Source of the DNA: Nanobdellati archaeon
Lineage (GTDB): Archaea; EX4484-52; JAADEF01
Direction: 5' to 3'
NCBI GenBank assembly: GCA_015521505.1
Contig: WAOB01000121.1
Location: 1 to 26,062 of the forward strand
DNA length: 26,062 bases
The position numbers and the translations under genes are program-made. Under the pieces are notes generated by a model that made no database searches, was not told the DNA's origin, and was given only the letters and a program-made list of their open reading frames with translations. Of the stretch, positions 445 through 23,763 are shown one piece after another. The first letter of the stretch is position 1. Each line of letters begins with the position of its first letter.

Positions 445-3102
445 ATGGCAAGATATTTGTTTCTTTCGCTTCTAGCGTCTTTATTTTTTATAAATATTTG
501 TTTCTCTTATAAGATTATAGAGCAGTATGATTTATTAGGAAAAAATATAACATCTCAAACAAATATTAAAACAACATATCTACTTAAGGATAATAATCTT
601 TATTCTTATAAATTATATTTTAATCACTCTACGGGGTTAAGTGATTGGTTTTATGTTTATGTGGATAATGACTATTTAGGAAATATACAAGCGAAATCAG
701 TTAATATTAGTGGTGATATTTATTACATGTTAAATATTTTATGGATAAATAAGGCGATTGCAGATTTTCTTAATACTTCCAATAACACAATAGTTGTTTC
801 TACGAGGGATGGAAAAACTTTGAGATTGTGCAGTGATATTTCATGCTTGAATGGGTATGATTATAAAACAATCTTTTTTAATAAAACAAAAGAAGATATC
901 TTAGATTTAGTTTGGTTAAATTACGAAAATATGAGTATTTTTTCTTTAAACGATGATAATTTATTAAAAACCTATTTGTTTTTTTACAATCTTTCTAATT
1001 CTCCTACAGTTTATCTGTTTGAAAGTTTCTATATTAAATATCCTTACCCTATTAATGAGATAGATGAACTTCCTTATCATAAATTGATATGTAATTTAGA
1101 TTGCGTAACTACTCAGCAATTTATTAATTCAACTTTTTATGTTAATATAGGTTCTGCTGATGGTTATGAAGATAAATTTATGCCTTTGAGTGTAGAAATA
1201 AAAACTTATACACCTTATGAATGGATAAACTCTACCTTTTATTATTATTTGGATTTAAATCCTCCTTATTTGATATCTTATTCTACTTCGTTACCTAATG
1301 GATCATATTTTATCTATTTGGATGAATGGGAAATCAACCTTACCACTAAAGATTTAAATCCTTATTCTTATGCTTGCTCTTATATAGTTAGGGATGTTGT
1401 AGGTGGTAGGCAATTTATCAACTACCTCTATCAAGACGAATGTGATAACATAACAATAAAGAATATTAATCTGACAGATTATAATGTAATCATTACTCTA
1501 TATGATTATGCGAATAATTCGAAGTCGTATCTATTTAGTTTTTATAGAAAACCTAATATTTTAGATTGTTATTGGAACGATTCTTATGAAAGGTGGTGTT
1601 ATTATAAATCATATCCTCTAAACCAGATGTATTTATATTTTGATAGATATGAAAATCTATCTATAGAGGATATGATTGTGGTCAAATTATCTATGTCTGT
1701 TCCTATAGATGGTATTAATACTATTGTGTTTAACAATCTTGAAGAGAACATATCTTATGTTTCAGGATGTGATAATTTTACATATTTTTATGCGAATAAA
1801 ACTCTCTTATGTAGTAATAATGTTTCATATATTGAGATGTACGCTTTACCCAATGTGACACTAAATCCATTTTACTATTTCGTTGAAAACATTTATCAAG
1901 ATAGAGAGAAATCTTCTGAGATGTACGGAGATACTTACATTGTTGCAAACATAAGTATTTGGAATATAGATTATATTTATACTCTTGTTCATCAAATTTT
2001 CAGAAATGTTTCTTACGATTTTAAATCTTTTTTAAAAAATATTATTAATGGGTATGAAGCATATAAAAATTATAAAGGATCTTTTGATATAGATTTTGAG
2101 AAAAATGTGTTGGTAAAACTTCAAGCAAGAAATAGGATATATGCGATATATGAGAACGATTATTATCTCAAAGAAAAGGACATATCTATACAAAACCCTT
2201 TAAATGTTTATCTGAAATACAGGGTATATAACAAGGATAATATTACATTCGAGAATATAAAAACAAACTTTCCGATGAAACCGCATAATATATTTAACAC
2301 AACAATCTGTAAGTTAGGTTATCCTTTGTACATTGATTTATCTCCTTTACAAGAGATTCGGAAAGAAGTTATGTTTAAATGTAACATTTTTAATTATACC
2401 ACAGAATTTAGGAAAACTAAATTAAAAGAAGGATATAAGTATTCTTACATTATAAGATTTTATTCACCATATGTTCCCTTACTAAATAATAAAAAGTTAT
2501 TTTATGTTGTGAATACATTGGATTTAGAATATTTTAATAAAAGAAGAGCGATGGTGGTTTATTTAAATAACCTTGGTAATGAATTAAACTACACTATAGA
2601 TGGGGAACTATTATATATTTATTTGCCTTATATTAGTGGTAATAATGAGATATTCGTCGAATATTGGTATATTATTGAGAAAAAAGAAAGCGATTCTAAT
2701 AAAGAAAAGAAAGATGAAGAAAAGAGAGTAGATAAAGAAGAGAAGAATTCAGAGAAAAAGAAAGATAAAAGAAACGAAAAAGATAAAGAAACAAGAAAAG
2801 AAAGAAGAGACAATAATTATGAGGAAGATGTTCTCGTTGAAGACAAAGAAAGATCTATAAATGTATCTTTGGAAAATAATAATACAGACATAGTGAGATT
2901 GTCTCAAGAGAAAACTGGAAAAGATGGTTTTATTACGGGAAAACTAATCGCTGAAAGAATTAAAAATTTAAATGTTTGGATAATAGTAGTTTTAACAGTC
3001 ATTTTAATATCTTTAATATTTGGAAAAATTTTAAGAAAAAGACAAAGAAGCAACTTAAATAGAATAAAATTTTTAGAATCATTAAAGAAAGAGGTGCTTT
3101 AA
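445..3102 (+). CDS. Secreted, C-terminally membrane-anchored surface protein, function unknown (885 aa)
   Basis: Residues 1-21 form a signal peptide (M-A-R, then a hydrophobic core ending at C-F-S). The body (about 25-740) is a beta-rich ectodomain with many N-x-S/T sequons and cysteines in close pairs (LCSDISC, ICNLDC, CYWNDSYERWC), suggesting disulfides outside the cell. Around residue 260 a P-P-Y-L-I-S-Y stretch looks like the start of an Ig-like module. Residues ~745-803 are almost only K, E, D and R, a likely extended charged helix or spacer. Then come F-I-T-G-K-L-I (829-835), a transmembrane helix (~844-862) and a basic cytoplasmic tail (RKRQR). I recognise no enzymatic motif. The gene ends 3 bases before the giant-protein gene and its last codons carry that gene's ribosome binding site, so the two should be co-expressed. 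A role as membrane partner or stalk for the giant protein is inference. The start at 445 is chosen because it gives a complete signal peptide. Confidence 0.8.
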   Translation: MARYLFLSLLASLFFINICFSYKIIEQYDLLGKNITSQTNIKTTYLLKDNNLYSYKLYFNHSTGLSDWFYVYVDNDYLGNIQAKSVNISGDIYYMLNILWINKAIADFLNTSNNTIVVSTRDGKTLRLCSDISCLNGYDYKTIFFNKTKEDILDLVWLNYENMSIFSLNDDNLLKTYLFFYNLSNSPTVYLFESFYIKYPYPINEIDELPYHKLICNLDCVTTQQFINSTFYVNIGSADGYEDKFMPLSVEIKTYTPYEWINSTFYYYLDLNPPYLISYSTSLPNGSYFIYLDEWEINLTTKDLNPYSYACSYIVRDVVGGRQFINYLYQDECDNITIKNINLTDYNVIITLYDYANNSKSYLFSFYRKPNILDCYWNDSYERWCYYKSYPLNQMYLYFDRYENLSIEDMIVVKLSMSVPIDGINTIVFNNLEENISYVSGCDNFTYFYANKTLLCSNNVSYIEMYALPNVTLNPFYYFVENIYQDREKSSEMYGDTYIVANISIWNIDYIYTLVHQIFRNVSYDFKSFLKNIINGYEAYKNYKGSFDIDFEKNVLVKLQARNRIYAIYENDYYLKEKDISIQNPLNVYLKYRVYNKDNITFENIKTNFPMKPHNIFNTTICKLGYPLYIDLSPLQEIRKEVMFKCNIFNYTTEFRKTKLKEGYKYSYIIRFYSPYVPLLNNKKLFYVVNTLDLEYFNKRRAMVVYLNNLGNELNYTIDGELLYIYLPYISGNNEIFVEYWYIIEKKESDSNKEKKDEEKRVDKEEKNSEKKKDKRNEKDKETRKERRDNNYEEDVLVEDKERSINVSLENNNTDIVRLSQEKTGKDGFITGKLIAERIKNLNVWIIVVLTVILISLIFGKILRKRQRSNLNRIKFLESLKKEVL
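2677..2853 (+). repeat. Low-complexity polypurine tract encoding a K/E/D/R-rich stalk
   Basis: On the + strand roughly nine of ten bases between 2700 and 2810 are A or G. The tract encodes residues ~745-803 of the upstream surface protein, made almost only of K, E, D and R, with E/D and K/R mixed as in single-alpha-helix segments. It lies just outside the C-terminal membrane anchor. Confidence 0.8.
3091..3096 (+). promoter_or_regulatory. Ribosome binding site of the giant gene
   Basis: GAGGTG lies inside the last codons of the preceding gene, nine bases before the ATG at 3106. It fixes this start and couples translation of the two genes. Confidence 0.8.
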
Positions 3103-3105: not shown

Positions 3106-6100
3106 ATGAGATCAAAAAAATGGAAAAAAGTAAGTTTTTTTGTAGTGTTTTTAATAGTCATCTCTATGTTTGCATACTTTAACTTTTTTTATACTTCTTT
3201 GAATATAAATATGTCACTATTATACAGTGAAAGCAATATTGATGCATATATTATTGCTAAGAATCTTGGTTTGGATGAAAGCAAGTTAGAAGGAAATACA
3301 TATTCATTAAAAGGATATGATGCAAGCATTTTAAAAAACAAAACCCTATACTCAGAAAGTAGAACATTCTTAAAAATAAATAATTTGGAACTTTACACAT
3401 ACAAAACGAAAGTTAGAATTAAAGATATCTATTCATCTCCATTAAAAAGAAAAATAGTTTATGAGATTTACAACTCCTCTCCATACTTTATCTTGTCAAA
3501 AAATGATGGAGAGATAAGTATTAAAGTATATGATATAAAAGGAAGAAAAGTTAAAATTGAGAAAATAAAAAAAATTGATGACATACAAAAAGAGTTTAAG
3601 AGAGATAATGGATGGGTTAGAGAGGTTAAAGAGGACCTATCTAATAAAGGATTATCTGTTCAAGATATAGAGGATATATTTTATGATGAGCTCTTACCAC
3701 CAGAAGGATGGATAAATATTCTTTATAAGATTCCTGATAATATAGAGTATCCTATAACCATAACTTTAGAATCACCTCCTCAATATGCATTTAAGTTTTT
3801 CTACTTTGATCCTTACTATTCAGGTTGGTGGAATGAGTCCTGGGAGTATAGAAGCATATACCACATAAAAAATAATAATTCCTATTCCTTAGATAACTAT
3901 CCTATTCTTTTAGTTTTAAATTCTACAAACTTTCCTTGGGATTTATCTAAATCGGATTTGAGCGATTTGAGAGTTACTCAATTTAATGAAACCCAACAGA
4001 GGGAATATGAAATGCCGTATTTTGTTGAATATGTCAACTGGCAGGACAAGATTGCTTATGTTTGGATAAGAGCAGAGAACTTTACTGCTAACAGAACAAT
4101 AACTATATTTTTATATCATGGAAATAAAGATGCTGTTGATGAGAGCAATCTTTCAGGAGTTGCTAGTTTTATGGATGATTTTGAGTCAGGCAGTTTAGAT
4201 ACAACAAAGTGGAGTGTTGTAGGAACTGTAAATGTTGAAACAGATCCTGTGTTTAATACAGGAATTTTAAGAGTTGATGGAGGTAATCAAATAACTGGAA
4301 CTTGTACATCAACTTATGTTGTGCCTGCAAATTCTGTGGTAGGATATTATGTACGACCAGAAGATACCGGAGACTGGGATACAGGATTGCAAGTAGGCAA
4401 TATATATTTTGTTTCTGATACTGGAGTATATGGTGCAGCTCCTATAATCGATACTGCATGGAACTATCCATCAGGATCTCAAGGACCAGATACGAAATTC
4501 CACTTCTACAGGTTAAAGGTTGAGGATAGTTATCAGGAAATGGTAGATTACACATCAGGAGGTTCAACAAGTGCTGCTTTTGCCTACACTCCAGGAAGTT
4601 TATGTACTATAACTGATTCTGACAGCACGGCAAGAGATGCCCTATATGATTTAATTTATGTTATGGAATTACCAGAAAACGGAACTATCTTAGTTTATAA
4701 CACTACCGAGTATGTTGGATATTATTATGTCAACATAACAACACCCAAAAACAATCAAAAAGTGTATAGATATGAAAGTTTCTATTTGAATGCAACTTTA
4801 AATGCTTCAGGATTTGATTTATATGATAAAGGTGATATTGTATTAACAGATTACGATGATTTTATAAAGTACGATTCTAAGGAAAATATTACTATTGTGG
4901 ATGTTGATGATAATGATTATTTGGAACTTGCCGGACAAACTAATTGGTATCCAGGATATAAGGATTGGAAATACAGAATGCCTATAAACATAACAAACAG
5001 AAATAATGTTCTTTTGAAAGATCACCAGGTCAATGTAACAATTAATACTCAACAACTCATATCTGCTTTTAAGATGAACGATACATGTCAGGATATAAGA
5101 TTTACATACTACAATGAGACATCAAGGCAAGAGGTGGTTATCCCTTACTGGTTAGAATCAGGATGTAATACTCCTCAAACAGTTATATGGGTTAAAATAC
5201 CTGAGTTAAAAGCGAATTCAAATACAACAATTTACCTATATTATGGAAACAATAATACATTTAACGAATCTTCAGGTGATGATGTTTTTATATTCTTTGA
5301 TGATTTTGAGGATCTTTACCAAGACCCAAACAAGTGGTATCCAGATGCAGAAACAACAGAAGAGCTTGATCCAGTTTATAATGTAGGGGTTATGAGGGTT
5401 CAGGGAGGTAATGAGATACTAGGTTCTTGTTCTGTACCTACTATTCCTTCGGATGTATATATAGATTTTTATATGAGATCCGAAAGTACATTAGATTTTG
5501 ATTCTGGATGGCTGATAGGTAACATCTACTTTATTTCAGATTCGGGAGCAGGATCGCAATGTATAGATACAACAGTATGTTTCCCTGCAGGTTCTCAGAC
5601 AGATACAACATTTCATCACTATAGGATCACTCTTCTATCAGGATCTCAATTTATCATCGATTTGAATACTGGAGATAGTGCCTCGAATACTTTGAGTTAT
5701 ATACCTGGTAGTATTTGTGGTTTCAGTGATTCTGATGATACCGGGAGAGATGTTTTCTATGATTTGGTTTATATAAGGGAATATGCTCAAATAGATGTGT
5801 TTGATCAATACAATGGAACAGAGGAAGAAAACAACTATATTTATTATGAGAATGGAAGTTATTTAATTACTATAGATATGCTTTCTGCATCAATTAACTA
5901 TACCAACATAACTTATTTTGCATACATTCCTTTAAATACTAATGTTGATATTTTTGCAAGAACATCTCCAGATAAAATTAAATGGAGTAGTTGGGATTTG
6001 ATACTTAATGGATCTTATCCTAATTTGCTTGGGGAAAGATATTTACAGCTAATGGTGCATTTAAACACAACCGATAACAAGACTTCTCCAAAATTGTATG

Positions 6101-9100
6101 CAATAAACATCTCTTATGAGAGAGTTAAAAACTCTCCTTATGCATGGTCGCAATATTTTAGTGTTATAACACCTTTAAAACAATATGTGGATGATACTTA
6201 TAGTGAGTTCATAAATTATACTTATGCAGAAAACATAACTGTAGGTTATGATGGAAGTTTGTATTTAAACAACACTACTTGGAGTTTTGGAATGTGGAAA
6301 TACAGATTACCTATAAATATAACAAACAACAACGTTCAAATATTGAGGGATTTCCAAATAAATGTTATTGTAGATACTGCAACATTAATTTCTCAGAAAA
6401 AAATGAAACCAAAATGTGAGGATATAAGATTCACTTACTATAATATAACAGATAAAAAAGAATATAATATTTCTTATTGGATAGAATCTGGATGTAATAC
6501 TACATCAACTTCAATATGGGTTAAAATACCTTATGTTTATTTAGGATCTAATACTCTGCTTTACATGTATTACGGTAATCCTTACGCTGAGTCATTGTCT
6601 AATCCTTACGAGGTGTTTGATTTTTATGATGATTTTGAATCTGGTATTATAGATGAAACAAAATGGACAGGAAGCAATACACAAATAGTTTTTGATCCTG
6701 TTGTAAATAGATACGCTGCTGAAGTACCTACAGGTAATCAGGTGCAGGGTATTTGTACTATACAGACATTTAATGCTCCATTCATTGTTGAATCTCATTT
6801 AAGGCCTACTACTACAGGAGATTTTGATGCTGGATGGTTGGTAAATGACATATATTTCATTACAGATACTTCTGGGACTGGAGCACCAGGTATTAGTCAA
6901 GGTGCTTGGAACTATCCTACCGGTTCTCATGGAGCAGATACTAGTTATCATTTCTACAGGATAGAGATGCAAGATGCTTCTCAAGTATTTACAGATTTGA
7001 CTAACGGGCAAAGTGCAACAGCGACATTTACTTACACTCCCGGGGGTATATGTTTATTAAATGACGGAGATGGTGGTGCTGCATCAAGGTTTGATGATAT
7101 AAGGGTAAGGAAACTTGCTGCAGATATGAACTTTGCTCAAACTATAGGGAATGAGGAAACTTATAACTCAACTTTCCCATCAGGAACTTATATTTCAAAA
7201 ATAATAGATGTGGAAACAAACGAGTATGAATTTGGAAACTTCTATTGGTATGGTAGAGATGATCCTAATGGAGATGGAAAATTCTATGTTAGAACCTCTC
7301 CTGATGGAATAACTTGGACGGGGTGGTATTTAGTAAGCAACAATACTTTAATAGAAGCACCTCCGAACAGATATGTACAATACAAATGGGAAATATTTAA
7401 TAATGATGTTGGGATTGCAGAGGTCGTGGATAAGGTAGTTATTGAGTATAAGATTGCATCTGCAGGTTTTGTTATAATGACACCTTCAAGTATCTTTTCT
7501 ACTTCAAATCCAGAAACTTGCCCTCTAGAGGAAGTAAAACAAAATCCTAACTTAAGGCTATGTAATGTTTCTTGGAGCGTAATTCCAAAGCAGGAAGGTA
7601 ACTACACTTTGAGGGTTAAAGTTAATTCAACCAACATTTACATGGAGGAAAGTTATTCTCAAGAGGTTAATATATCTGTATTTATTAGAACATCCATAAT
7701 TGATTTTACAATAATCCCTCCTGTTCAAGGGCAAAGGAGAAATATCACTTTGAGAGCAAGACTGGTTGATGATTTAAGTAACCCTTTATCCGGATATAAT
7801 ATTTCTTTCTATGACTCAACAACTGGAAAGTGGTATGGAGATGCTTTAACTAGTAGTAATGGGTATGGTGAACTGATCTACACAATACCAAAAGACGAGG
7901 TTTTAGGTTATCATACAGTATATGCTATTTTTAATGGTTCATGGCCAGATTTCTTGGAGAAATCTAATGCATCTTTACAATATAAAGTTTCTTCTGTACC
8001 GCAAATAAATGCTCTTTATACTATTCCTTACTGGCAGGGAAATAATCAAATAGTGAGGTTAAGAGCAAACATAACAGACAAGGTTGGAGTAGATACTGTC
8101 CTTATCTACATTTACAACTCAACTAATGCTCTAGTTGTTGATGGTGCTAAAATGACCTCTATAGGTAATGATCTATACGAATATAATTTCTCCTCATGGC
8201 ATGCAGATAAGTTTAAGTTTTATGTGTGGGTTAACAATACAGACGGTATAACCAATACATCAGATTTTAAAGATTTTGTTGTGGATGTTAAGGCTGAAAT
8301 TTCTGTTAAGACAGAGAAGAATAAGTATGAGAATTACGAGTATGTTTATTTAAGTAATTACGATTATGATTGGTTTAATACTTCATGGATGTATAGGTTG
8401 CCTATTGAGTTGTACAATCCTAATAGTTATGATGTTTACTATGATGCCGTTAATGTGACTCTTAATACCAGATCTCTTATTTCACAAGGAAAAATGAAAC
8501 CTGCATGTGAGGATTTAAGATTAACTATTAAGAAAAATGTTTACGTTGTTGAACTTAATATTACAAACAACAAAGCAGTAAGCTTCACTGACAGGTCTGT
8601 TAAGATGACTATAAGTAATAGAGATATAGTTTCAAACTTCAATGATGATGGCTCTGATATAAGAATATTTGAAAACAAAGTTGAAGATCCTTATTCTCGT
8701 GGAGATTATTTGAATTATTGGGTGGAAAGAATAGATAAAGAAACTGGCAATGCAATAATTTGGGTTAAGATTCCTTATATAGGTGCTTATGAAACTAAAA
8801 CTTTGTACTTGTATTATGGAAATAAGAATGCAATAGATAAGCAAAACTATTCTGCTGTTTTTGATACTGTTATAGGAGAGGCAAGAACCTTTATATTAAA
8901 TAGCAGTGTAAAAACCATCAACTTCTTAAGAACTTATTCTCAATCACCAGTTGTTATGGCATCTTTAAATAGTGAAAATGAGATAGATCAGGCATTTGTT
9001 AGGATAACTTCTGTAACAACAAGCGGTTTTGATGCTTTTATACAGGAATCTATTGCTTTAGATGGTACACATGTTTTTGAGAATGCATCTTATATTGCCT

Positions 9101-12100
9101 TACTACCAGGGGAATGGTTAGTAGGAGGTAGGTACTTGGAAGTTGGTACTGGTAGTGTTGATAGTAACTATGCAACTTTAACATTTACTAATGTATTCTC
9201 CTCCAAACCTATAGTATTGAGTCAAATACTAACTAATAATGAAGCAGATCCAGCAAAAACAAGACAAAATAACATCTTGACAGGAGGTTTTGATGTTAAG
9301 ATAGAGGAGACTGATACTGTTGACACACCCCATACTTTTGAGACTGTAGGTTATGTAGCATCAGAGATGTTCAATTTAAAGACAAAATCGATGGTGATTA
9401 ATGTTGGTTTCAAGAATCATGACCAGCCATCTGCTAATGACTGGTTTACATATAGATTAGAAGGATTTTCTTCTATTCCTGTGGTTGTTGCTAAGATAAT
9501 GACAGAAAATGGACCAGATAATGCCCATGAAAGAATAAGAAATGTTAATCCAACATACTTTGAATATCAAATAGAGGAAGAAGCAGGTTATGATGGAGTT
9601 CACATTAATGAGGATAATGGTTATATTGCTGTGAGTAATGCATCTTTACTTTATGGATTACCTTATGCAGATTATTCTATGTCTGTTACTTTAGGTTCTC
9701 AAGAAGTTGTTTCTTCAACTTATGAAGAAATTCCTTATTGGATAGAGGAAGGATGTAACACTAATTTAACTAAAATATGGGTTCAAATACCTATTTTGAA
9801 ATCTCAAGATAGTATTTTAGTTTATGCTTATTACGGCAATCCTAATGCTTTAAGTAAATCAAATAAATCCGCTGTGTTTAGTTATCCTTTCAAGAAATCT
9901 TTCTATTATGTTTTGGATGGAGATATTGCATTAGGAGATTTACAAATATCAGCCTATTATAACGATACCTCTTATGAGATAGGCACCTCTTCTGGAATCA
10001 TCGATAAACAACAACTTGCCTTAATACCTGCTGGTGATTTAAATGTTGGTAGTGCTTTGAAATCTAACAAACCTTTATCCACTACAACATTAGTTTCAGG
10101 AAATGGAGATGCTTTAACACCAAAGATAGCGATAGGTAAAGAGTTCATTACTTACTCTATAAGAGGAGTTGAGTATTTGACTATATTGTCTTTGGATAAT
10201 GACAATCTGATTGAGATTTATGATGTATCCTCAGGAGTGTTTACGAAAGTAGGGAGTTTAACATTGAATGCTTATCAATCTTCAACCTTTAGCTATGATT
10301 TCCTTGATGGTAATAGTATATATGTTAATTCAAGTAAACCTATCTTATTACATAGGAGAGCAGAAACTGATTATGATTTATTCACTGTTTTCCCTCCATC
10401 TTTGGGATGGTATGGTGTGCCATCTCAAAACCTCGGTATTGTGGCTTTAAGACCAAATACACAAGTAACTATTTATAGATCAGATCAATCAACACCCACT
10501 ACCGTAACTCTTACTAATGCTGGTGATTCCTATACCTTGGGAACATTAGGAACTGCAGGTAATGCTCCTGCATTTTATGTTAATGCTACAAAACCAATAA
10601 GTGTAATGGCATGGGCAGATGGTGATGGTACAGAAGGAACTACTTTCTTGCCGGAGAATGAGCTTGATAATGAGTATATTTTACCTGCTGATGCTGAATA
10701 CGTTGCTATAGCAACCAAAGATGCCATAGCAACATGTTATATTTATGATGCTAACGGGACACTATCAACTTCTACAACAACATCTTATACTTCTACTCAA
10801 TACCCTTACCCTGGCTATATAAGATTTGGAGGTACTGTTTTAGCAGGATCAAAAATAAACTGTACCTCTCCTTTCTTTGCATACTTTGAGAGGGCAAATC
10901 TTTATGAAACCAATCTTTATGGTCCTAAACATTTCAGAGAAGGTTTCTTGTATTCAATAAGACAAACAAATAGAACTGAGGAAGATGTTTACAACAACTT
11001 GAAGAACAATGGTAATACTACTTTGAGAGGCTATCTTTATATGATAGTTGAGGAAGAAACCTCTACAGGATGGTCTTTAGTATTTCCTGATGGTGTAATT
11101 ATTAATGATAGAGCAGATAATAATCTGAGATCGCTATTACCTGGAGATTTTATTAATTTAACTGATTTATGGAAGCAGCAAGGAGGTTGGTATACCTCTA
11201 GTAGAGAACCTAAAAAATATAGAGTCTATATTGCTTTCCAAGATGAAAGTGGTTTACCAATAAAAGATTCTTATGGAAACAGATTAGAAGATTACTACAT
11301 CTTTGAGATAATACCTTCGGAACTTACAGTAACTAGATTAGAGCATGAGAACATGTATAAAGGTAATGTTAAAGAGTATGAGGTAGGAGATAACATAGCA
11401 TTAATAAATGTTTCAGTTAAAGCATTAAATAACACAGCAATAGATGCTCAAGTAGAGCTAGATTTAGTTAAACTAGATAAAACCTATGCAGGTTTTGGTC
11501 CTTTAAATGAGATCTATTCTTGTGGTAATATTCCAAAAGATAGTGAATGTTATGCAGTTTATGATAACACATCTAATGGATATGATATCCCATTAAATGC
11601 CCAAGGAGATTATATCTTCTATTGGAATGTTACAATGACTTTACAAAATGGAGAGGCAAAATATAACGGAACAGAACACATAAAAGTACATGATTTAAGG
11701 AATAATGTATCATCAACCTTACAACCTACAAGAATTTATATCGGTAAAGGGCAAGCATCTTATTATAACTTCACAATATTTAATCCATGGAGTGTCAATA
11801 TAAGTTATGTTAATGTTACAATAAATTGTGATGCAACATTAAATTGTACTTGTTCTTTGCCTAATCAACTTTATCAACCAAATTATTGTTATCTTGGAAA
11901 TGTATCTGGAAAGGAATATGCTTATGCGAACTTTACTGTTAATTATACTTCATCTACAACACAAGGAGATTATGTCATTAATGCAACTTTGGAATATTAC
12001 AATATAGGAGATGAATTTAAGAAATGGTATGAACTTGCTCCTCAAACCTTAGAAGTGAGATATCAAGGCATATTAGCAATAACTCCTTATACCTATCCTT

Positions 12101-15100
12101 CAAGAGTTGTTAGAGGGCAAAGCGGTTATGTTTTCGAAACTTATATAAACAACACAGCAGATTTTATATCGACTAATGCTTGGTTAAACTATACCTTGCC
12201 TGCTGGATGGAGTAATACCTCTGGTAATCTATACGATAGAGCATTAAGCTTAAATCCATCAGAGATCTTCTGGAACAACATAACAGTTTTTGTTGGTTTA
12301 TCTTCCTCCTTAGGTGTACAAACTGTTAGGATAGATTCTGGATCTGATCAAGGACAAGAAGATTTTAAGAACCTACAAGTAGAGGTTTATGCAAAACCTA
12401 GGGTTTTAAATATTGTATTTAATGATTCCAATGTCAGCCAAGGAGAGCAAGTTATTATTTATGCTCAACTTATAGATGATTTAGGAGATCCCATTCAAGG
12501 AGAAACCTTGAGATTTTATGATGAAAATGAAAGTATCTTTATAGGATCAGCAACTACTGATGCCAATGGAAATGCCTCTATAGTCTATACATTACCTTCC
12601 AATGCTTTGACAGGATTACACTATATAAATGTTTCTTTCTTTGAGAACCCATCATCTTATTTGTTATATGCAGAAAACTATTCTTGGTTAGATGTAGGCG
12701 AGAAACCGAAAATAAATGCTATATGGCATGATCCTTATGAGATATCTTATGGAGGAAACATAAGTATTTATGTTAATACTACGGATGATGATGGAATAAG
12801 CAATGTTGAACTCTACATAACCTATGCAAATGGAACTCAACAAATCTTTAACATGATACATCTTTATGGAGATATCTATAACTACAACATATCCGATCTA
12901 TGGGACTATGGATCTTATACATATTATGTGGTTGTTGAAGACATAACAGGAAGTAGAACATCCTCATTAATAAAAACATTTAATTTAGTTTCTTATGCAA
13001 AAGTTTATATTTTGACAGATAATGAGAGTTATCCTCCAAATACAGATGTCTATTTAGTTTCGAACATGAGCTGGTATTATAAGGATAGATACTATAAGAA
13101 AAAGATTGTTTTAGAAAACAATTATGGATTTAATTTAAATAATTCATTTGAATTAATACAGATAGATACAAGAACATTAATAAGTCAAGGAAAATTAGAT
13201 GATAGATGTGAGAATTTAGCGTTTACTTATTATAATGCAACATCCAATCAAGAACAACTCGTAAGACATTATGTCATTCCAGGATCATGTAATTCTGAAA
13301 AAACTTATATTTATGTTGAGATACCTTTAATTTCTGCTTTAAGTAATTCAACAATATTTATGTATTATGACTCAGTGAGCAATGTTAAGAAGTATTATTA
13401 TGGTGAAATCAATATTACATCATTTGAAGAAAACATAACAATTCATTACCCTGTTTCCTCAGTACATAACGGAAGTGATGCTTATGCTGTAAGTTATGTT
13501 GATGGTTATATGGAAGTTGGAACCACACCTCATGTAATGATTAAGGGTTCTCCAGAACTTATATCACAAACAGAGATGGTACAGAATACACCGATAAAGC
13601 ATAACGTTCCTGTTTCAATTTCAAGTGTTGACGGGGATGGAGATGCATTTCCAAGTATTGCTATGGCAGGTAAGAGATTTACTTATAGAATGGATAGAGG
13701 TGTCGATAGGTTCTATATTATGGCAGTGTGGCAAGATGCCAACTGTAACATCTATGACTCAACAACTCTTGTTGATAGCTTTACCGTTAATAAGGGTCAG
13801 GCAGTAACAAGAAACACTGATATAACGGATGGTAATGCAGGTATTTTAGAATGTGATGCTCCTGTCTTAGCATTCCATGATGCAACAGGAAATGATGCTT
13901 ACGTGATGTATCCTGTAAGTAAAGAATGGTATGGTGTTGCTAGTAATTACTTGATGATTTCTGCTTTAGAAGACAATACTTATGTGGAATATTATAAAAG
14001 TGATGGATCTACTAACTCCTCACCTATAATACTTAATAGGGGGCAGACTTATATTGAGATCGGTCTGGGATCTCAGGGAAACGGACCTGCTGTTTATGTT
14101 AAAGCAAACAAACCAATAGGTGTTAATACAATAGCAGATGGAGATGGAACAGATGGAGCTATTTTCTTACCTGGATGGGAATTAAGCAATTACTATATAT
14201 TTCCAGAAGATTTTGAATATATTGCTGTTGCAGTTCCTTATTCATTTACTAAATGTGATTTACTTAACCAAAATGATTTAGTTATTGATAGTAAAATATC
14301 AGGTAATCTACAGCCGCCACATCCTGGACAGATGTTGTTTGGTTCAGGAAATGCAGGATATAGATTAAGATGTAACAACTCTGTATATGCGTATTATGAG
14401 CAGTTATCTGGCAATAGAGAAACAAATATATTCGGTGCTATATCAAATAGAATAGGTTATGGATATAATGCAACTAATAAATATATATTGGAAGAGTATG
14501 TGCAGGGATCTAAGGTTATAAACCATGGTAATATTTCTATGCATTATTATTTAGTTGCTTATGTTGAGCAAAATACAACTAATGGTTGGAAACATATAGA
14601 AACAATAATAAACGATACCTCTACAGGAACTTTAAGAAAACTCAACCAGTATGAAAGTTTTGATATAGCAAGTTTATGGAATCAAAGTCCTTTTAATACT
14701 GATCTATATCCAAAAGGCACTTATAGGGTTAAAGCAGATTTGGTTGATAAAGAAGGAAATGTTATGCAAAGTGTTTATGGAGTAGTAACAAACCACGATT
14801 TATTTAATATAACTGCGGGAGAACTTAAACTTAACATTACCCAAATAAGGATATATAATGTAACTTATTCATTAAATCCGAGAACCTCTGAAGTTGATCT
14901 AGAAAAAGCATCTATTAACGATACTTTTATAATGTATGTCAGTGAGATTTATAGGATAGAAGTGGATGTTAACGTTTCCTCTACTTCTTCTATATGGTGG
15001 ATTAATACTACAAATGTAAGTTATGAAAACCTAAACAGCGATAACTGGGTTATAAAATATCAAGATATATGGTATAGGAATTCAACAGATATTAATGACA

Positions 15101-18100
15101 GAATAGGAGGTAACTTTAGTTTTAATATTTTAACATGGAATACTACAGATAACGACGGTAAAGAAGATCCTTCAGGTAAGGTGACTTTCTATTATATTCT
15201 AAATTTAACGAATGCCGTCCCTGAAGAGAGACAGGTTGTGTTTAAGGTTATAGGGAATGGTGTTGGAGAGCAAGATATCTCCACTTTCAAGATTTTACCT
15301 CAGGACAGAGTTCCTCCTGTACTTTATAATAACACCTATGACTTAAACACTTCCTGGGTTATAAGAGGAGATGATGCTTTGGTTTATGCAAGATGGAATG
15401 AAGAAATAGGTAATGCTTTAGTTGAATACAACTCAACCACTCCTGTTTTAGTTAACTATACTATAACCTTACCTTCTCCTAATCCATACAATTGGACTAA
15501 CTATACTTTAGATACAACCTCTGCATGGTTATTAGGGAATCATGCAGTTAAGATTTATGCGGAAGATATCTCAGGTAATATGAACTCTTCTTTGAAATAT
15601 TTAATTTTAAGTGTTTATGGATTAGCATCTATAACTAATAGCTATGTTAATACCTCTACTATAGGTATTGGAGAGTATGTTGAGATTCATTGCCAAGTTA
15701 AAGATTTAACCTCTGATCCTGTTAGTGCTATAGAATCATACAAAATTGTTTTCTATAATGAATCTGATGTTTTAGGTATTAATTATACTAATAGCAGTGG
15801 TTATGCTTCTTGGATTTATAATGATTACTCTCCAGGTTATGAAACGATAGGTTGTTATATCGAGGATAATAAAACGAGATTCTATAAAGTTGATCAAAAT
15901 AATTATAATAAATCATTTACAATATTCACTCAAGAGTTTGTGCCTCCTTATTATACAGAGGTCTGGCAAAACTCAAGCATAATTCATAAAGGAGAGTTTA
16001 TCGAGTTGAATGTTTATTGGCATGACAACTTTCAGTTAGATTATGCATTACTTGAACTAAACTCCTCTGGAACTTTCCAAAATATTTCATCGATAAATCT
16101 AAACAAGCAAAAAGATGCTTGGGCTAACTTTACATATCAGTATCCTATAAGCTATTCCCCTGGATTTGTTGCTTGGAGAGAATATGCTAACGATACCTCA
16201 GGAAATCTGAACTATACTTCTCCTTTGAAAATATTTGAAGTATGGGGTTGGGCCAAATTAGATTCCATAACTCTAAATCCATCCTCTATGTATGTTGGAA
16301 ACTCTACAATAATCTCATGTAAAGTTATAGATGCTAATTCAACTTCTCCATTACAGGGATATGCTGTTAGGTTTTACAATGATACACATCTTTTAGGTAT
16401 AAATTATACTTTAGCAGATGGAATAGCAACATGGAACTATACCGATTACTCCCCAGGAAAGGAAACAATAACTTGTGAGATTTTAGACAATCAAACTTTA
16501 ATGTACAATGCATCATCTCCAAGAAACATTTCTGCTCAACTTAATACGGTTTTGAGCGGTGATGCCTATCCTCCAAAAATTGTTAACAACTTGTATGGAT
16601 TGAATGTAAGTTATACTGATAAGGTATTTAGGAATGAAACTGTGTTGCTTTATGCATTATGGGATGAAGAAATAAATTATTCATGGTATGAGGTTAACAC
16701 AACATCCCCAAACATGGAGGTGGTTTATGTTCCGGGTCATGTTAACAACTGGACCAACCACACAATACAATTAAACTATTCTTGGATTGTAGGAAGGCAT
16801 TATGTTAAGTTATATGCTAACGACACAACAGGTAACGTTAATGATACATTATGGTATTTGAACTTCTCTGTATGGGGATTTAGTAGAGTGGATTGGATTT
16901 CTCCTAAAGATGGACAGGAAGTTAATAGATCTATCGTATATTTAATAACTAATGTGAGTGATGCAGATACATGGTGGTGTATAAACGGATATAAAGTAGA
17001 TTATTATGATAATGTTACTCCAGGATATTATATAGGTTCTGCATATACAGATGAGAATAATAACTGCTATGCTAATTTAACATGGGACGCTTCTAATACC
17101 GATGTTGGTTATCATAAATTAACTGCAATAATAAATGATGATCCCAATAAGTTTTATCTGGCATCTTCTTCAACTTCCTCTATTACTATAATTATTGTAA
17201 TTTTGGGTGCTTTAAACACTACTATTTTATCACCATTAGATGGACAAAAGCTTTATAGAGGTCAAAGTTATTGGTTTAACTCAACAACAAAAGACGATAC
17301 AGGCCAAGTTATAACACCAGATAACGCTACTTGGTATGATAATCAATCTTATTTAGCATCTCAGGAAAACTTTACCTATACCATACCATCTAATGCTCCT
17401 TTAGGTTATCATTTAATTGAAATCAATACTTCTGCTCCTTATTATCAAAGAGGACATGATGAAATAATAGTAGAATATTGGAGCAAAGCAGATGTTAATG
17501 TAACTTCTCCATATAATGGTTCTACTGTTTATATAAACAATACAATACAAATTGAATGTAGTGTTACTGATTATATAACCTCTCAAGGAATACAAAACTA
17601 CAATGTCAGTTTCTATATACAAAATTCTACTTATAATGAGTATTTAGGATATGCTTTAACTGATGCTAATGGCATAGCAACTATGGATTGGTTTGTTAAT
17701 GAAAGTAAATATGTGAAAAATACATATTATGATGTTGTCTGTACTATTGGATCAGAAGTAGATTTGTGGTATGATGTTAACATTAGTGTAAGCAAATCGA
17801 CAGTATATCTCAACGAAACAATTGGCCAATTATGGGTAGAACTTATTTTCCCACAACCAGGAATAACAACTTATGTTGATAAAGATAACAATTTTTATAT
17901 AAATGCAACAGTAACTTGTAAGTTTGGCACTTGTGGAGAGGTTAATGCTACAGCATTATATAACAATTTACCTATCTCTACAGTTATAGGTGATCAACCA
18001 TTCTATATAAATGATGGATTAGGAAATCCAAGAATCTGTTCATCTAATTTAATGCCCGATCAGAGTTGTAATGTCTCTTTTGTTGTTAATGCAACAGGAG

Positions 18101-18657
18101 ATTATGGAAGTATATGGAACATATCAGTAAACTTTACTTCAAACTTAGGCATGTATAATAAAACTCAGGATGCAGAGGTGTTTATAGGTTATGTTTTGAT
18201 TTTGAGTGTTGAACCTTCGGAGATAAGTTATTGGTATTTACCTCCTTCAGATCCAGCACAGAACTATCTTGTTCCTCCTGTTCAAAGTGTTGATCCTTCA
18301 ACTTCATTGATTAAAGCAGCAAATACGACAGAGGTTAAGCTATTGCCTGGATCAGCAGATGCCAACGGAGGATTATGGATTAAAGGAGAGAATTTAACTT
18401 CATCTACAAGTTCAAGTGTTATTCCTGTTTGGAATTTAACAAGATGTTTAGGTAGAGTAGAAGATTATCCAACACCACAATCTGCTCAAGCATGTTGGAG
18501 TGATCCAGCAAACAAATTAAGTTATGAATACAAACAAGTGCTCACAACTATGGTTGCCGGAGATTGGATAAATATAACTATATTTTTAGACTCTCCTCCT
18601 GTTTATGCTGATAAGTACTCAGGAAACATAACAATAATGGTCAATGCCACATATTAG
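3106..18657 (+). CDS. Giant multidomain DUF2341/Ig-like surface protein (5183 aa)
   Basis: The N-terminus has a basic segment (RSKKWKK) and one hydrophobic helix (~9-33) with no clear cleavage site, so it is probably an uncleaved signal anchor with the rest outside the cell. There is no C-terminal anchor; the protein ends in a beta-rich domain. Domain order by residue: 35-240 unrecognised; DUF2341 plus concanavalin-like units at ~241-537, ~621-902 and ~1064-1350; Ig-like/Big_1-like modules from ~1529; DUF2341 split into 1756-1807 and 2206-2265 by an inserted second DUF2341 and three H-type-lectin-like repeats; IgGFc-binding-like block ~2264-2742; CARDB/Ig modules to ~3320; a further DUF2341 at ~3325-3420; second IgGFc-binding-like block ~3432-3912; Ig modules including three two-module units (4069-4690); C-terminal domain ~4850-5183. 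N-x-S/T sequons are dense throughout, so heavy N-glycosylation is likely. DUF2341 proteins are known as secreted, often very large, prokaryotic surface proteins. An adhesin, sheath or host-contact fibre is the inferred role. No frameshift or stop interrupts 15.5 kb, which argues for selection to keep it. Confidence 0.9.
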   Translation: MRSKKWKKVSFFVVFLIVISMFAYFNFFYTSLNINMSLLYSESNIDAYIIAKNLGLDESKLEGNTYSLKGYDASILKNKTLYSESRTFLKINNLELYTYKTKVRIKDIYSSPLKRKIVYEIYNSSPYFILSKNDGEISIKVYDIKGRKVKIEKIKKIDDIQKEFKRDNGWVREVKEDLSNKGLSVQDIEDIFYDELLPPEGWINILYKIPDNIEYPITITLESPPQYAFKFFYFDPYYSGWWNESWEYRSIYHIKNNNSYSLDNYPILLVLNSTNFPWDLSKSDLSDLRVTQFNETQQREYEMPYFVEYVNWQDKIAYVWIRAENFTANRTITIFLYHGNKDAVDESNLSGVASFMDDFESGSLDTTKWSVVGTVNVETDPVFNTGILRVDGGNQITGTCTSTYVVPANSVVGYYVRPEDTGDWDTGLQVGNIYFVSDTGVYGAAPIIDTAWNYPSGSQGPDTKFHFYRLKVEDSYQEMVDYTSGGSTSAAFAYTPGSLCTITDSDSTARDALYDLIYVMELPENGTILVYNTTEYVGYYYVNITTPKNNQKVYRYESFYLNATLNASGFDLYDKGDIVLTDYDDFIKYDSKENITIVDVDDNDYLELAGQTNWYPGYKDWKYRMPINITNRNNVLLKDHQVNVTINTQQLISAFKMNDTCQDIRFTYYNETSRQEVVIPYWLESGCNTPQTVIWVKIPELKANSNTTIYLYYGNNNTFNESSGDDVFIFFDDFEDLYQDPNKWYPDAETTEELDPVYNVGVMRVQGGNEILGSCSVPTIPSDVYIDFYMRSESTLDFDSGWLIGNIYFISDSGAGSQCIDTTVCFPAGSQTDTTFHHYRITLLSGSQFIIDLNTGDSASNTLSYIPGSICGFSDSDDTGRDVFYDLVYIREYAQIDVFDQYNGTEEENNYIYYENGSYLITIDMLSASINYTNITYFAYIPLNTNVDIFARTSPDKIKWSSWDLILNGSYPNLLGERYLQLMVHLNTTDNKTSPKLYAINISYERVKNSPYAWSQYFSVITPLKQYVDDTYSEFINYTYAENITVGYDGSLYLNNTTWSFGMWKYRLPINITNNNVQILRDFQINVIVDTATLISQKKMKPKCEDIRFTYYNITDKKEYNISYWIESGCNTTSTSIWVKIPYVYLGSNTLLYMYYGNPYAESLSNPYEVFDFYDDFESGIIDETKWTGSNTQIVFDPVVNRYAAEVPTGNQVQGICTIQTFNAPFIVESHLRPTTTGDFDAGWLVNDIYFITDTSGTGAPGISQGAWNYPTGSHGADTSYHFYRIEMQDASQVFTDLTNGQSATATFTYTPGGICLLNDGDGGAASRFDDIRVRKLAADMNFAQTIGNEETYNSTFPSGTYISKIIDVETNEYEFGNFYWYGRDDPNGDGKFYVRTSPDGITWTGWYLVSNNTLIEAPPNRYVQYKWEIFNNDVGIAEVVDKVVIEYKIASAGFVIMTPSSIFSTSNPETCPLEEVKQNPNLRLCNVSWSVIPKQEGNYTLRVKVNSTNIYMEESYSQEVNISVFIRTSIIDFTIIPPVQGQRRNITLRARLVDDLSNPLSGYNISFYDSTTGKWYGDALTSSNGYGELIYTIPKDEVLGYHTVYAIFNGSWPDFLEKSNASLQYKVSSVPQINALYTIPYWQGNNQIVRLRANITDKVGVDTVLIYIYNSTNALVVDGAKMTSIGNDLYEYNFSSWHADKFKFYVWVNNTDGITNTSDFKDFVVDVKAEISVKTEKNKYENYEYVYLSNYDYDWFNTSWMYRLPIELYNPNSYDVYYDAVNVTLNTRSLISQGKMKPACEDLRLTIKKNVYVVELNITNNKAVSFTDRSVKMTISNRDIVSNFNDDGSDIRIFENKVEDPYSRGDYLNYWVERIDKETGNAIIWVKIPYIGAYETKTLYLYYGNKNAIDKQNYSAVFDTVIGEARTFILNSSVKTINFLRTYSQSPVVMASLNSENEIDQAFVRITSVTTSGFDAFIQESIALDGTHVFENASYIALLPGEWLVGGRYLEVGTGSVDSNYATLTFTNVFSSKPIVLSQILTNNEADPAKTRQNNILTGGFDVKIEETDTVDTPHTFETVGYVASEMFNLKTKSMVINVGFKNHDQPSANDWFTYRLEGFSSIPVVVAKIMTENGPDNAHERIRNVNPTYFEYQIEEEAGYDGVHINEDNGYIAVSNASLLYGLPYADYSMSVTLGSQEVVSSTYEEIPYWIEEGCNTNLTKIWVQIPILKSQDSILVYAYYGNPNALSKSNKSAVFSYPFKKSFYYVLDGDIALGDLQISAYYNDTSYEIGTSSGIIDKQQLALIPAGDLNVGSALKSNKPLSTTTLVSGNGDALTPKIAIGKEFITYSIRGVEYLTILSLDNDNLIEIYDVSSGVFTKVGSLTLNAYQSSTFSYDFLDGNSIYVNSSKPILLHRRAETDYDLFTVFPPSLGWYGVPSQNLGIVALRPNTQVTIYRSDQSTPTTVTLTNAGDSYTLGTLGTAGNAPAFYVNATKPISVMAWADGDGTEGTTFLPENELDNEYILPADAEYVAIATKDAIATCYIYDANGTLSTSTTTSYTSTQYPYPGYIRFGGTVLAGSKINCTSPFFAYFERANLYETNLYGPKHFREGFLYSIRQTNRTEEDVYNNLKNNGNTTLRGYLYMIVEEETSTGWSLVFPDGVIINDRADNNLRSLLPGDFINLTDLWKQQGGWYTSSREPKKYRVYIAFQDESGLPIKDSYGNRLEDYYIFEIIPSELTVTRLEHENMYKGNVKEYEVGDNIALINVSVKALNNTAIDAQVELDLVKLDKTYAGFGPLNEIYSCGNIPKDSECYAVYDNTSNGYDIPLNAQGDYIFYWNVTMTLQNGEAKYNGTEHIKVHDLRNNVSSTLQPTRIYIGKGQASYYNFTIFNPWSVNISYVNVTINCDATLNCTCSLPNQLYQPNYCYLGNVSGKEYAYANFTVNYTSSTTQGDYVINATLEYYNIGDEFKKWYELAPQTLEVRYQGILAITPYTYPSRVVRGQSGYVFETYINNTADFISTNAWLNYTLPAGWSNTSGNLYDRALSLNPSEIFWNNITVFVGLSSSLGVQTVRIDSGSDQGQEDFKNLQVEVYAKPRVLNIVFNDSNVSQGEQVIIYAQLIDDLGDPIQGETLRFYDENESIFIGSATTDANGNASIVYTLPSNALTGLHYINVSFFENPSSYLLYAENYSWLDVGEKPKINAIWHDPYEISYGGNISIYVNTTDDDGISNVELYITYANGTQQIFNMIHLYGDIYNYNISDLWDYGSYTYYVVVEDITGSRTSSLIKTFNLVSYAKVYILTDNESYPPNTDVYLVSNMSWYYKDRYYKKKIVLENNYGFNLNNSFELIQIDTRTLISQGKLDDRCENLAFTYYNATSNQEQLVRHYVIPGSCNSEKTYIYVEIPLISALSNSTIFMYYDSVSNVKKYYYGEINITSFEENITIHYPVSSVHNGSDAYAVSYVDGYMEVGTTPHVMIKGSPELISQTEMVQNTPIKHNVPVSISSVDGDGDAFPSIAMAGKRFTYRMDRGVDRFYIMAVWQDANCNIYDSTTLVDSFTVNKGQAVTRNTDITDGNAGILECDAPVLAFHDATGNDAYVMYPVSKEWYGVASNYLMISALEDNTYVEYYKSDGSTNSSPIILNRGQTYIEIGLGSQGNGPAVYVKANKPIGVNTIADGDGTDGAIFLPGWELSNYYIFPEDFEYIAVAVPYSFTKCDLLNQNDLVIDSKISGNLQPPHPGQMLFGSGNAGYRLRCNNSVYAYYEQLSGNRETNIFGAISNRIGYGYNATNKYILEEYVQGSKVINHGNISMHYYLVAYVEQNTTNGWKHIETIINDTSTGTLRKLNQYESFDIASLWNQSPFNTDLYPKGTYRVKADLVDKEGNVMQSVYGVVTNHDLFNITAGELKLNITQIRIYNVTYSLNPRTSEVDLEKASINDTFIMYVSEIYRIEVDVNVSSTSSIWWINTTNVSYENLNSDNWVIKYQDIWYRNSTDINDRIGGNFSFNILTWNTTDNDGKEDPSGKVTFYYILNLTNAVPEERQVVFKVIGNGVGEQDISTFKILPQDRVPPVLYNNTYDLNTSWVIRGDDALVYARWNEEIGNALVEYNSTTPVLVNYTITLPSPNPYNWTNYTLDTTSAWLLGNHAVKIYAEDISGNMNSSLKYLILSVYGLASITNSYVNTSTIGIGEYVEIHCQVKDLTSDPVSAIESYKIVFYNESDVLGINYTNSSGYASWIYNDYSPGYETIGCYIEDNKTRFYKVDQNNYNKSFTIFTQEFVPPYYTEVWQNSSIIHKGEFIELNVYWHDNFQLDYALLELNSSGTFQNISSINLNKQKDAWANFTYQYPISYSPGFVAWREYANDTSGNLNYTSPLKIFEVWGWAKLDSITLNPSSMYVGNSTIISCKVIDANSTSPLQGYAVRFYNDTHLLGINYTLADGIATWNYTDYSPGKETITCEILDNQTLMYNASSPRNISAQLNTVLSGDAYPPKIVNNLYGLNVSYTDKVFRNETVLLYALWDEEINYSWYEVNTTSPNMEVVYVPGHVNNWTNHTIQLNYSWIVGRHYVKLYANDTTGNVNDTLWYLNFSVWGFSRVDWISPKDGQEVNRSIVYLITNVSDADTWWCINGYKVDYYDNVTPGYYIGSAYTDENNNCYANLTWDASNTDVGYHKLTAIINDDPNKFYLASSSTSSITIIIVILGALNTTILSPLDGQKLYRGQSYWFNSTTKDDTGQVITPDNATWYDNQSYLASQENFTYTIPSNAPLGYHLIEINTSAPYYQRGHDEIIVEYWSKADVNVTSPYNGSTVYINNTIQIECSVTDYITSQGIQNYNVSFYIQNSTYNEYLGYALTDANGIATMDWFVNESKYVKNTYYDVVCTIGSEVDLWYDVNISVSKSTVYLNETIGQLWVELIFPQPGITTYVDKDNNFYINATVTCKFGTCGEVNATALYNNLPISTVIGDQPFYINDGLGNPRICSSNLMPDQSCNVSFVVNATGDYGSIWNISVNFTSNLGMYNKTQDAEVFIGYVLILSVEPSEISYWYLPPSDPAQNYLVPPVQSVDPSTSLIKAANTTEVKLLPGSADANGGLWIKGENLTSSTSSSVIPVWNLTRCLGRVEDYPTPQSAQACWSDPANKLSYEYKQVLTTMVAGDWINITIFLDSPPVYADKYSGNITIMVNATY
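3826..7150 (+). repeat. Three tandem DUF2341 + concanavalin-like units in the giant gene
   Basis: Each unit starts with W-[EK]-Y-R-x-[IP]-[IY] (bases 3826, 4966, 6295), runs through a P-Y/S-Y-[FW] strand and a Y-[HY]-G-N end, and passes straight into F-x-D-D-F-E (bases 4168, 5293, 6622), the start of a concanavalin/LamG-like module. The concanavalin-like modules share a G-[TSI]-C near their start and a P-G-[SG]-[LI]-C near their end, so each probably has one disulfide. DUF2341 copies two and three carry a cysteine pair 26 residues apart (661/687 and 1104/1130); copy one lacks it. A shorter module with R-T-S-P-D-x-[IK] and a W-x-x-W-like core follows units two and three. Confidence 0.75.
8371..9890 (+). 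repeat. DUF2341 module split by an inserted DUF2341 + lectin-like block
   Basis: The N-terminal half (residues 1756-1807) ends at A-C-E-D-L-R-L-T. The matching C-terminal half resumes at residue 2206 with E-I-P-Y-W-I-E-E-G-C-N-T and continues to Y-Y-G-N-P. In unsplit copies C-x-D-x-R and S-G-C-N-T are 26 residues apart; here they are at 1801 and 2217. The material between has its own complete DUF2341 pattern (D-I-R-I-F, Y-W-V-E-R, W-V-K-I-P, L-Y-Y-G-N; about 1812-1920) followed by three lectin-like repeats, and contains no cysteine. Confidence 0.75.
8905..9655 (+). repeat. Three tandem H-type-lectin-like repeats
   Basis: Three ~80-residue repeats (residues ~1934-2183) share the order: F-x-[RN]-x-[YF]-[SF]-x-x-P-[VI]-V, then a strand, A-x-x-R, [FY]-[DE]-[AVY], D-x-x-H-x-[FN]-E-x, then a Y-[IV]-A strand. 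Repeat one has D-G-T-H-V-F-E, repeat two D-T-P-H-T-F-E and repeat three D-G-V-H-I-N-E. The layout resembles H-type lectin-like modules often found next to DUF2341. The family name is an eye match; the threefold repetition is directly visible. Confidence 0.6.
9895..11330 (+). repeat. IgGFc-binding-like block, copy A
   Basis: Residues ~2264-2742. The block has strands ending in S-S-K-P-I-L-L and A-T-K-P-I-S-V-M-A, with an A-D-G-D-G-T-E-G loop and F-L-P. This is the pattern of IgGFc-binding-like beta domains. It continues into a segment with N-N-G-N-T-T-L-R-G-Y-L-Y and D-L-W-K-Q. Copy B has the same order of landmarks, so the whole ~480-residue block is duplicated. Confidence 0.65.
13400..14840 (+). 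repeat. IgGFc-binding-like block, copy B
   Basis: Residues ~3432-3912. The landmarks match copy A in order: V-D-G-D-G-D-A, C-D-A-P-V-L-A, K-E-W-Y-G-V-A, K-P-I-G-V-N, A-D-G-D-G-T-D-G, F-L-P, N-H-G-N-I-S, S-L-W-N-Q. It again directly follows a DUF2341 module (cysteines at 3368 and 3395). Sequence identity with copy A looks moderate, so the duplication is old. Confidence 0.65.
15310..17190 (+). repeat. Three alternating two-module Ig-like units
   Basis: Module A begins P-P-x-x-x-x-N/W and contains a W-x-[ED]-like strand and A-x-D-x-[ST]-G-N (residues ~4069, 4279, 4488). Module B begins [YW]-G-[LWF]-[AS] and contains F-Y/Y-Y-[ND], G-I-N-Y or I-G-S-A, and a Y-[AS]-x-W/T-W strand (residues ~4173, 4381, 4591). 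The A-B pair repeats three times at ~210 residues per unit. Module B carries a cysteine pair. Confidence 0.65.
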
Positions 18658-20447: not shown

Positions 20448-20452
20448 CTTCA

Positions 20453-20458
20453 CACCTC
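20453..20458 (-). promoter_or_regulatory. Ribosome binding site deciding the second platform gene start
   Basis: GAGGTG on the - strand stands five bases before the ATG at 20447. It overlaps the alternative GTG start at 20453, making that start unlikely. Confidence 0.7.
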
Positions 20459-20462
20459 TTTG

Positions 20463-21485: not shown

Positions 21486-21496
21486 AACTACAACCT

Positions 21497-23702: not shown

Positions 23703-23721
23703 AAAGTTAATTTAAATTTAA

Positions 23722-23740: not shown

Positions 23741-23763
23741 AATATTCTTATATTGTGGTTTTT

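What the first reader, a model, noticed from the sequence alone, without database searches (positions are those of the whole stretch)
8371..9890. A DUF2341 module nested inside another DUF2341 module, with its disulfide pair kept across a ~390-residue insertion
Four DUF2341 copies in the giant have a conserved cysteine pair. Three are intact, with spacings of 26, 26 and 27 residues (661/687, 1104/1130, 3368/3395). In the fourth the same two cysteines, in the same local sequence, are 416 residues apart (1801/2217). The intervening block contains its own cysteine-free DUF2341 pattern plus three lectin-like repeats and no cysteine at all. This looks like insertion of a whole domain cassette into a surface loop without breaking the host fold. 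The lectin-like repeats would then be presented from the side of the fibre, not in line. Same-family nesting of this kind is rarely noted.
Basis: partly seen in the sequence, partly recalled or inferred. Interest (0 to 1): 0.75.

Follow-up and report, generated by a model that had tools for sequence, protein, structure and literature searches.

The report
Surface-protein domain nested inside its kin
In a giant surface protein of a tiny uncultured archaeon, one building-block domain is opened at a hairpin tip and appears to carry, inside itself, a second domain of its own family plus three domains related to sugar-binding proteins, an arrangement shared by nine diverse related proteins.

Summary
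In a 5183-aa giant (window 3106-18657 +), one DUF2341 domain is split: halves 1756-1810 and 2205-2262 flank a 394-residue cassette of a cysteine-free DUF2341 plus three H-type-lectin repeats. AlphaFold2 (pLDDT 84, pTM 0.76) gives both halves the secondary structure of an intact control copy, 54 of 55 and 56 of 57 positions, at fixed offsets: the insert replaces only a hairpin tip, and C1801/C2217 fall on the two cysteine positions.

Ten distinct proteins, the window's included and all found by searching with this region, share the nesting. Nine have both cysteines, one neither; 30 intact copies have 19 both, 11 neither, 0 single. Insert DUF2341s form one clade (100/99). Un-nested DUF2341-plus-lectin blocks exist in other archaea.

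Not shown: bonding distance (no coordinates returned), sugar binding, side display, direction of the change. Domain insertion is a known kind. Unusual are the same-family nesting, its conservation, concordant cysteines across some 415 residues, and three lectins that may form a single-chain pseudo-trimer.

The parts
3106..18657 (+). giant surface protein, 5183 aa (P0001)
   Evidence: single open frame; 57.6% identical over 5041 aligned columns to the giant of a related genome, G002
8371..8535 (+). host DUF2341, N-half (residues 1756-1810), holding C1801 (nt 8506-8508)
   Evidence: hmm 1-54, E 1.6e-16; secondary structure equals intact copy at offset +17, 54 of 55
8536..9717 (+). inserted cassette (residues 1811-2204, 394 aa; net +390 against an intact hairpin)
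   Evidence: offset changes from +17 to +407 between control positions 59 and 64
8536..8865 (+). insert DUF2341, no Cys pair (residues 1811-1920)
   Evidence: hmm 4-114, E 5.2e-30; Pfam 60.6 bits; one clade with eight other inserts, 100/99
8866..9123 (+). H-type lectin repeat 1 (residues 1921-2006)
   Evidence: PF09458 29.6 bits; repeat alignment
9124..9378 (+). H-type lectin repeat 2 (residues 2007-2091)
9379..9663 (+). H-type lectin repeat 3 (residues 2092-2186)
9664..9717 (+). return segment of the cassette (residues 2187-2204)
   Evidence: strands E459-462 and E466-474; a similar YG..Y segment follows the lectins in the un-nested G344 copy (read)
9718..9891 (+). host DUF2341, C-half (residues 2205-2262), holding C2217 (nt 9754-9756)
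   Evidence: Pfam 46.3 bits; offset +407, 56 of 57
3826..4170 (+). intact DUF2341 copy 1, no Cys pair
   Evidence: residues 241-355
4957..5295 (+). intact DUF2341 copy 2, C661/C687
   Evidence: residues 618-730; AF2 control
6280..6624 (+). intact DUF2341 copy 3, C1104/C1130
   Evidence: residues 1059-1173
13072..13401 (+). intact DUF2341 copy 5, C3368/C3395
   Evidence: residues 3323-3432
9892..11000 (+). unnamed ~350-aa module after the split host, repeated after copy 5
   Evidence: 37% identity over 346 aligned columns, E 1e-58

Best explanation
One DUF2341 beta-sandwich of a giant archaeal surface protein serves as a socket. The tip of the hairpin between its DIR[FL]T and EIPYWIE strands is replaced by a 394-residue cassette, made of a second DUF2341 and three H-type lectin repeats, and the chain then returns to finish the host fold. 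The conserved cysteine pair sits at the root of that hairpin, where the cassette leaves and re-enters, and most likely forms a disulfide that staples the host shut. The cassette thus hangs off the fibre as a short side arm, with no flexible linker visible on its N-terminal side, and the lectins, perhaps packed as one single-chain pseudo-trimer, bind glycans on a partner surface. The disulfide would also let tension along the fibre bypass the 415-residue loop. Shown by computation: the split, its conservation, the Cys co-occurrence, the predicted secondary-structure match. Inferred: the disulfide bond, sideways display, the pseudo-trimer, glycan binding, the tension bypass.
Confidence: 0.78

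Rival explanations
1. Tandem degenerate copies: the N-half is a decayed partial DUF2341, the insert is an ordinary in-line copy, and the C-half is a third, decayed copy; nothing is nested and the lectins lie in line.
For: In P0001, P0004 and G002 the C-half match reaches back to hmm 19-22.
Against: In the eight other distinct nested proteins the two halves cover complementary stretches of the model, overlapping by at most 7 columns; cysteines are present or absent together in 10 of 10; AF2 gives both halves good confidence and intact-copy registers. A decayed stub would not be expected to keep its half of the pattern over relatives at 34-66% identity.
Confidence: 0.07
2. Crossed pairing: the host N-half pairs with the insert's C-half and the insert's N-half with the host C-half, a strand-swapped pair of domains with the lectins inside one of them.
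For: All four half-domains are DUF2341-like, so sequence alone permits it; the host C-half's secondary structure also resembles the insert's (47 of 57).
Against: The Cys pattern (hosts have it, inserts have none, both absent in P0010) and the short contiguous hairpin inside the insert copy favour local pairing.
Confidence: 0.04
3. The reverse history: a nested or multi-copy block is ancestral, and un-nested DUF2341-lectin blocks such as that of G344 arose by losing the outer halves; no cassette was ever inserted.
For: G344's DUF2341 carries the Cys pair (22 residues apart, read) like hosts, not inserts; inserts plus the G344 and G268 copies as one clade is 21.8 log units worse (p 0.068, not a rejection).
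Against: Insertion into one hairpin is the simpler single step (inference); insert copies form one clade apart from hosts.
Confidence: 0.25
4. Sequencing or assembly artefact.
For: The window comes from a 141-contig genome.
Against: Nine other distinct proteins share the arrangement, and the window's frame is open throughout.
Confidence: 0.01

Closest known systems
DUF2341 giants of archaeal type IV pilus loci (arCOG03508 and others; PMC4858521, section 9 read)
   Same: Large DUF2341 proteins placed by those authors at the pilus tip by analogy with PilY; in the window a T2SSE ATPase, two T2SSF proteins and two small proteins with pilin-like N-termini lie downstream.
   Different: That section describes no nesting or lectins. 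In the stretches taken around giants of G178, G344, G260, G268 and G232 no relative of these genes was found.
RrgA / GBS104 pilus-tip adhesins (PMC7893114, passages read)
   Same: The D3 domain is inserted between two sequence regions that fold back together into host domains, so a binding domain is carried by a split host.
   Different: The insert is a vWA domain in Ig-type hosts, not the host's own family with lectins; a different kind of pilus in Gram-positive bacteria.
H-type lectins (Helix pomatia agglutinin, discoidin II)
   Same: Pfam H_lectin match and 80-85 residues superposed at rmsd 1.9-2.8.
   Different: Known ones assemble from separate chains (recalled); here three repeats lie in one chain. 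Binding residues were not compared.
A1-B-A2 domain insertions (ECOD survey, PMC13114784, abstract and passages seen)
   Same: One domain interrupts another whose parts still fold together.
   Different: In that survey inserted domains are smaller than hosts in 77.0% of paired measurements. Here each inserted domain (about 85-110 residues) is no larger than the host (113), but the cassette as a whole (394) is about 3.5 times it and holds a member of the host's own family.

Membership tests
DUF2341 (PF10102), split host | profile match over the curated cut-off | tested here: met
   C-half 46.3 bits, cut-off 23.4; N-half mostly outside the Pfam model, found with the 115-column model at 1.6e-16
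DUF2341 (PF10102), split host | same fold as an intact copy | tested here: met
   predicted secondary structure 54 of 55 and 56 of 57 at fixed offsets; predicted, not solved, and without coordinates
DUF2341 (PF10102), split host | cysteine pair of Cys-bearing copies within bonding distance | not testable with these tools
   no coordinates returned; co-occurrence only
H-type lectin (PF09458) | profile match over the curated cut-off | tested here: met
   29.6 bits, cut-off 24, repeat 1 only; 7 of 9 aligned rows match at 0.01
H-type lectin (PF09458) | H-type fold in all three repeats | tested here: inconclusive
H-type lectin (PF09458) | sugar binding | not testable with these tools
   needs a glycan assay
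H-type lectin (PF09458) | trimeric assembly | tested here: inconclusive
Type IV pilus tip adhesin (PilY-like) | encoded in a pilus locus | tested here: inconclusive
   yes in the window; not in the stretches taken around giants of 5 other genomes
A1-B-A2 domain insertion | two host segments complementary in the profile and flanking an independent domain | tested here: met
   8 of 8 giants, G178 and G002, P0012

The most novel reading that the evidence does not exclude
The DUF2341 hairpin is a reusable, disulfide-stapled socket, and this family uses it to mount a single-chain pseudo-trimeric H-type lectin as a stiff side arm on a giant archaeal adhesin, with the staple shunting fibre tension past the arm.
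Probability: 0.35. Interest if true: 0.65.

Novelty: new variant of a known kind. Interest (0 to 1): 0.52.

Why it matters
How DPANN archaea attach to other cells is poorly known, and their giant proteins are mostly unread beyond domain lists (general knowledge). This region picks out one conserved, lectin-bearing element inside a 5000-residue protein, suggests how it can sit on the fibre without breaking it, and gives a single piece of about 510 residues that can be expressed and tested. It is also a clean, conserved case of a domain carrying a member of its own family inside itself, with a concordant cysteine pair as an internal check.

Tried and rejected
Giants in G232 and G260 first looked like empty sites (an intact DUF2341 at the matching place). 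The FastTree groups those copies with P0009_c378, not with the window's host, so I do not claim an empty site.

A recent local self-duplication is unlikely: insert copies form one old clade apart from hosts, G+C of insert and flanks is alike (0.328 against 0.326 and 0.347), and no repeat of 14 bases or more joins the two junctions (it did list one direct pair and two inverted pairs elsewhere in the region, one arm of an 18-base inverted pair ending 8 bases before the C-terminal junction). An ancient one is not excluded: hosts plus inserts as one clade is 15.1 log units worse, p 0.0685.

Viral contigs gave no relative with the patterns used. The region 2262-2900 as query found only P0003-P0005 (1170 candidates scored).

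Relatives of the window's pilus genes and of its two flanking proteins were sought around giants of G178, G344, G260, G268 and G232 and not found.

Rows dropped: P0003 (98% identical to the window) and G002 (89% to P0005) from counts of distinct proteins; P0011 (11% coverage); one truncated G354 copy from the tree, which also lacks P0012 and G002.

Literature: DUF2341 occurs in 6 papers of the held library (listing); I saw passages of three and read section 9 of one of these, PMC4858521. Searches on nesting and insertion; on H-type lectins in archaea; on DPANN giants: with passages of PMC10266531; on RrgA. I saw no description of this nesting in what they showed, which covers only this library.

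Full report
WHAT IS THERE. The window lies in a fragmented genome (849 kb, 141 contigs, 76.5% complete). A genome of the same family, G002, carries the homologous giant on a 16,373-base contig; a public contig of the same length titled DPANN group archaeon, JALWJP010000086.1, came up with the same match, so I take the window to be from a DPANN archaeon. The gene at 3106-18657 (+) encodes 5183 residues. It holds intact DUF2341 copies at 241-355, 618-730, 1059-1173 and 3323-3432 plus the region in question.

THE SPLIT. With a 115-column model built from intact copies, residues 1756-1809 match columns 1-54, residues 1809-1920 match a whole second domain (4-114), and residues 2164-2260 match 19-115. 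In 8 of 8 distinct giants (P0001, P0004-P0010) there is exactly one such split copy; G178 and G002 and P0012 show the same. Leaving out P0003 (98% identical to the window) and G002 (89% to P0005) gives 10 distinct nested proteins, the window's included. All were found by searching with the nested region or a homologue of it, so the figure speaks for conservation, not for how often the host is found nested. Identity to the window in this region is 34-66% for the seven in the alignment and 33% for G178. In P0001, P0004 and G002 the C-half match runs upstream to column 19-22; in the other eight distinct proteins the halves overlap by 0-7 columns. That upstream reach is the one sequence result that leaves room for a degenerate complete copy.

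CYSTEINES. At model columns 46 and 72, 30 intact copies have both (19) or neither (11), never one. Split hosts of the eight giants have both (7) or neither (1, P0010); insert copies have neither in 8 of 8. G178 and P0012 have both. So 10 of 10 split hosts are concordant, 9 with the pair, across 414-428 residues in the seven giants measured. The Fisher value for intact copies, 1.8e-8, ignores relatedness, and with only one Cys-less split host the split rows alone prove little. Together with the intact copies they point to a bonded pair.

STRUCTURE. AF2 of 1735-2290 on 9 nested rows: pLDDT 84.0, pTM 0.76, below 50 only at the two ends (1-20, 528-556). An intact copy (612-745) on 20 intact rows: pLDDT 89.2, pTM 0.79. 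Laying the control's DSSP string on the nested one gives 54 of 55 matches at offset +17 for control positions 5-59 and 56 of 57 at +407 for 64-120. The next offsets are neighbours (47 and 49); then come 39 of 55 for the N part (offsets +66 and +290) and 47 of 57 for the C part at +68, which is the insert's own DUF2341. The net insertion is thus 390 residues at the four-residue turn between control positions 59 and 64. Control cysteines at 50 and 76 map to model 67 and 483, that is C1801 and C2217. Over 50 unsplit copies in 14 proteins this hairpin segment varies from 8 to 16 residues. One strand (model 71-86) runs from host straight into insert, so no linker is visible on that side; the return side has strands 466-474 and 477-481. 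Coordinates are not returned, so distances and orientation are unmeasured.

EVOLUTION. A 59-row tree of DUF2341 copies puts the 9 inserts on one branch (100/99). Hosts did not form one clade in the best tree, but one host clade is not rejected (p 0.112), nor is a joint host-plus-insert clade (p 0.0685), nor inserts with the lectin-linked copies of G344 and G268 (p 0.068). In the FastTree the hosts fall in three groups, two among mostly Cys-bearing copies and one beside Cys-less copies at support 0.745. DUF2341 followed by the lectin block without a C-half after it occurs in G344 and G268; in G354 a partial DUF2341 at the contig end precedes it; lectins without a DUF2341 hit in the stretch taken occur in G223 and G201. 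In 394 related genomes, at most three candidates scored in each, 17 have any match at 1e-15 and 3 the whole nested region, G000, G002 and G178. In the phylum search it was 2 of 34 at 1e-30. Whether nesting came from tandem or the reverse is open.

FUNCTION. Downstream lie two T2SSF proteins, a T2SSE ATPase and two small proteins whose N-termini look like archaeal pilins (my reading; motif recalled). Section 9 of PMC4858521 places large DUF2341 proteins of archaeal pilus loci at the pilus tip by analogy with PilY. Relatives of the window's pilus genes were not found in the stretches taken around giants of five other genomes, so pilus attachment is a hypothesis for this locus. The nearest working analogue is RrgA and GBS104, where a binding domain is inserted into host domains of a pilus tip (passages of PMC7893114).

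NOVELTY. Domain insertion is common. In a 2026 survey inserted domains are smaller than hosts in 77.0% of measurements and 65.8% of events join different superfamilies (PMC13114784). Same-superfamily nesting is therefore not exceptional. This case stands out for same-family nesting inside a giant adhesin-like protein, a four-domain cassette about 3.5 times the length of its host, a concordant cysteine pair over more than 400 residues, and conservation in 10 diverse proteins. I rate it a new variant of a known kind.

Noticed in passing
window 19554-24252: Type IV pilus-type genes next to the giant: two T2SSF proteins, one T2SSE ATPase (- strand) and two small proteins with pilin-like N-termini (+ strand).
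   Followed up: partly
window 445-3102 and 18669-19523: Two proteins (885 and 284 aa) with hydrophobic stretches near their C-termini flank the giant on the same strand; no Pfam match and no relatives in the stretches taken around giants of five other genomes.
   Followed up: partly
window 9892-11000 and 13402-14510: An unnamed ~350-aa module follows both the split host and copy 5 (37% identical).
   Followed up: partly
P0004 residues 585-697 and 1031-1145: Two DUF2341 copies in one giant are identical over the shared model columns, suggesting recent duplication or gene conversion among copies.
   Followed up: no
P0010 residues 3302-3510: A second stretch matching the lectin repeats follows the nested region in this giant.
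   Followed up: no
G007:C54: A 10914-residue open frame with several matches to the query region in a genome of the same order.
   Followed up: no
window 25322-26062: Part of a gene with an eRF1 domain 3 (eRF1_3) at the window's edge.
   Followed up: no
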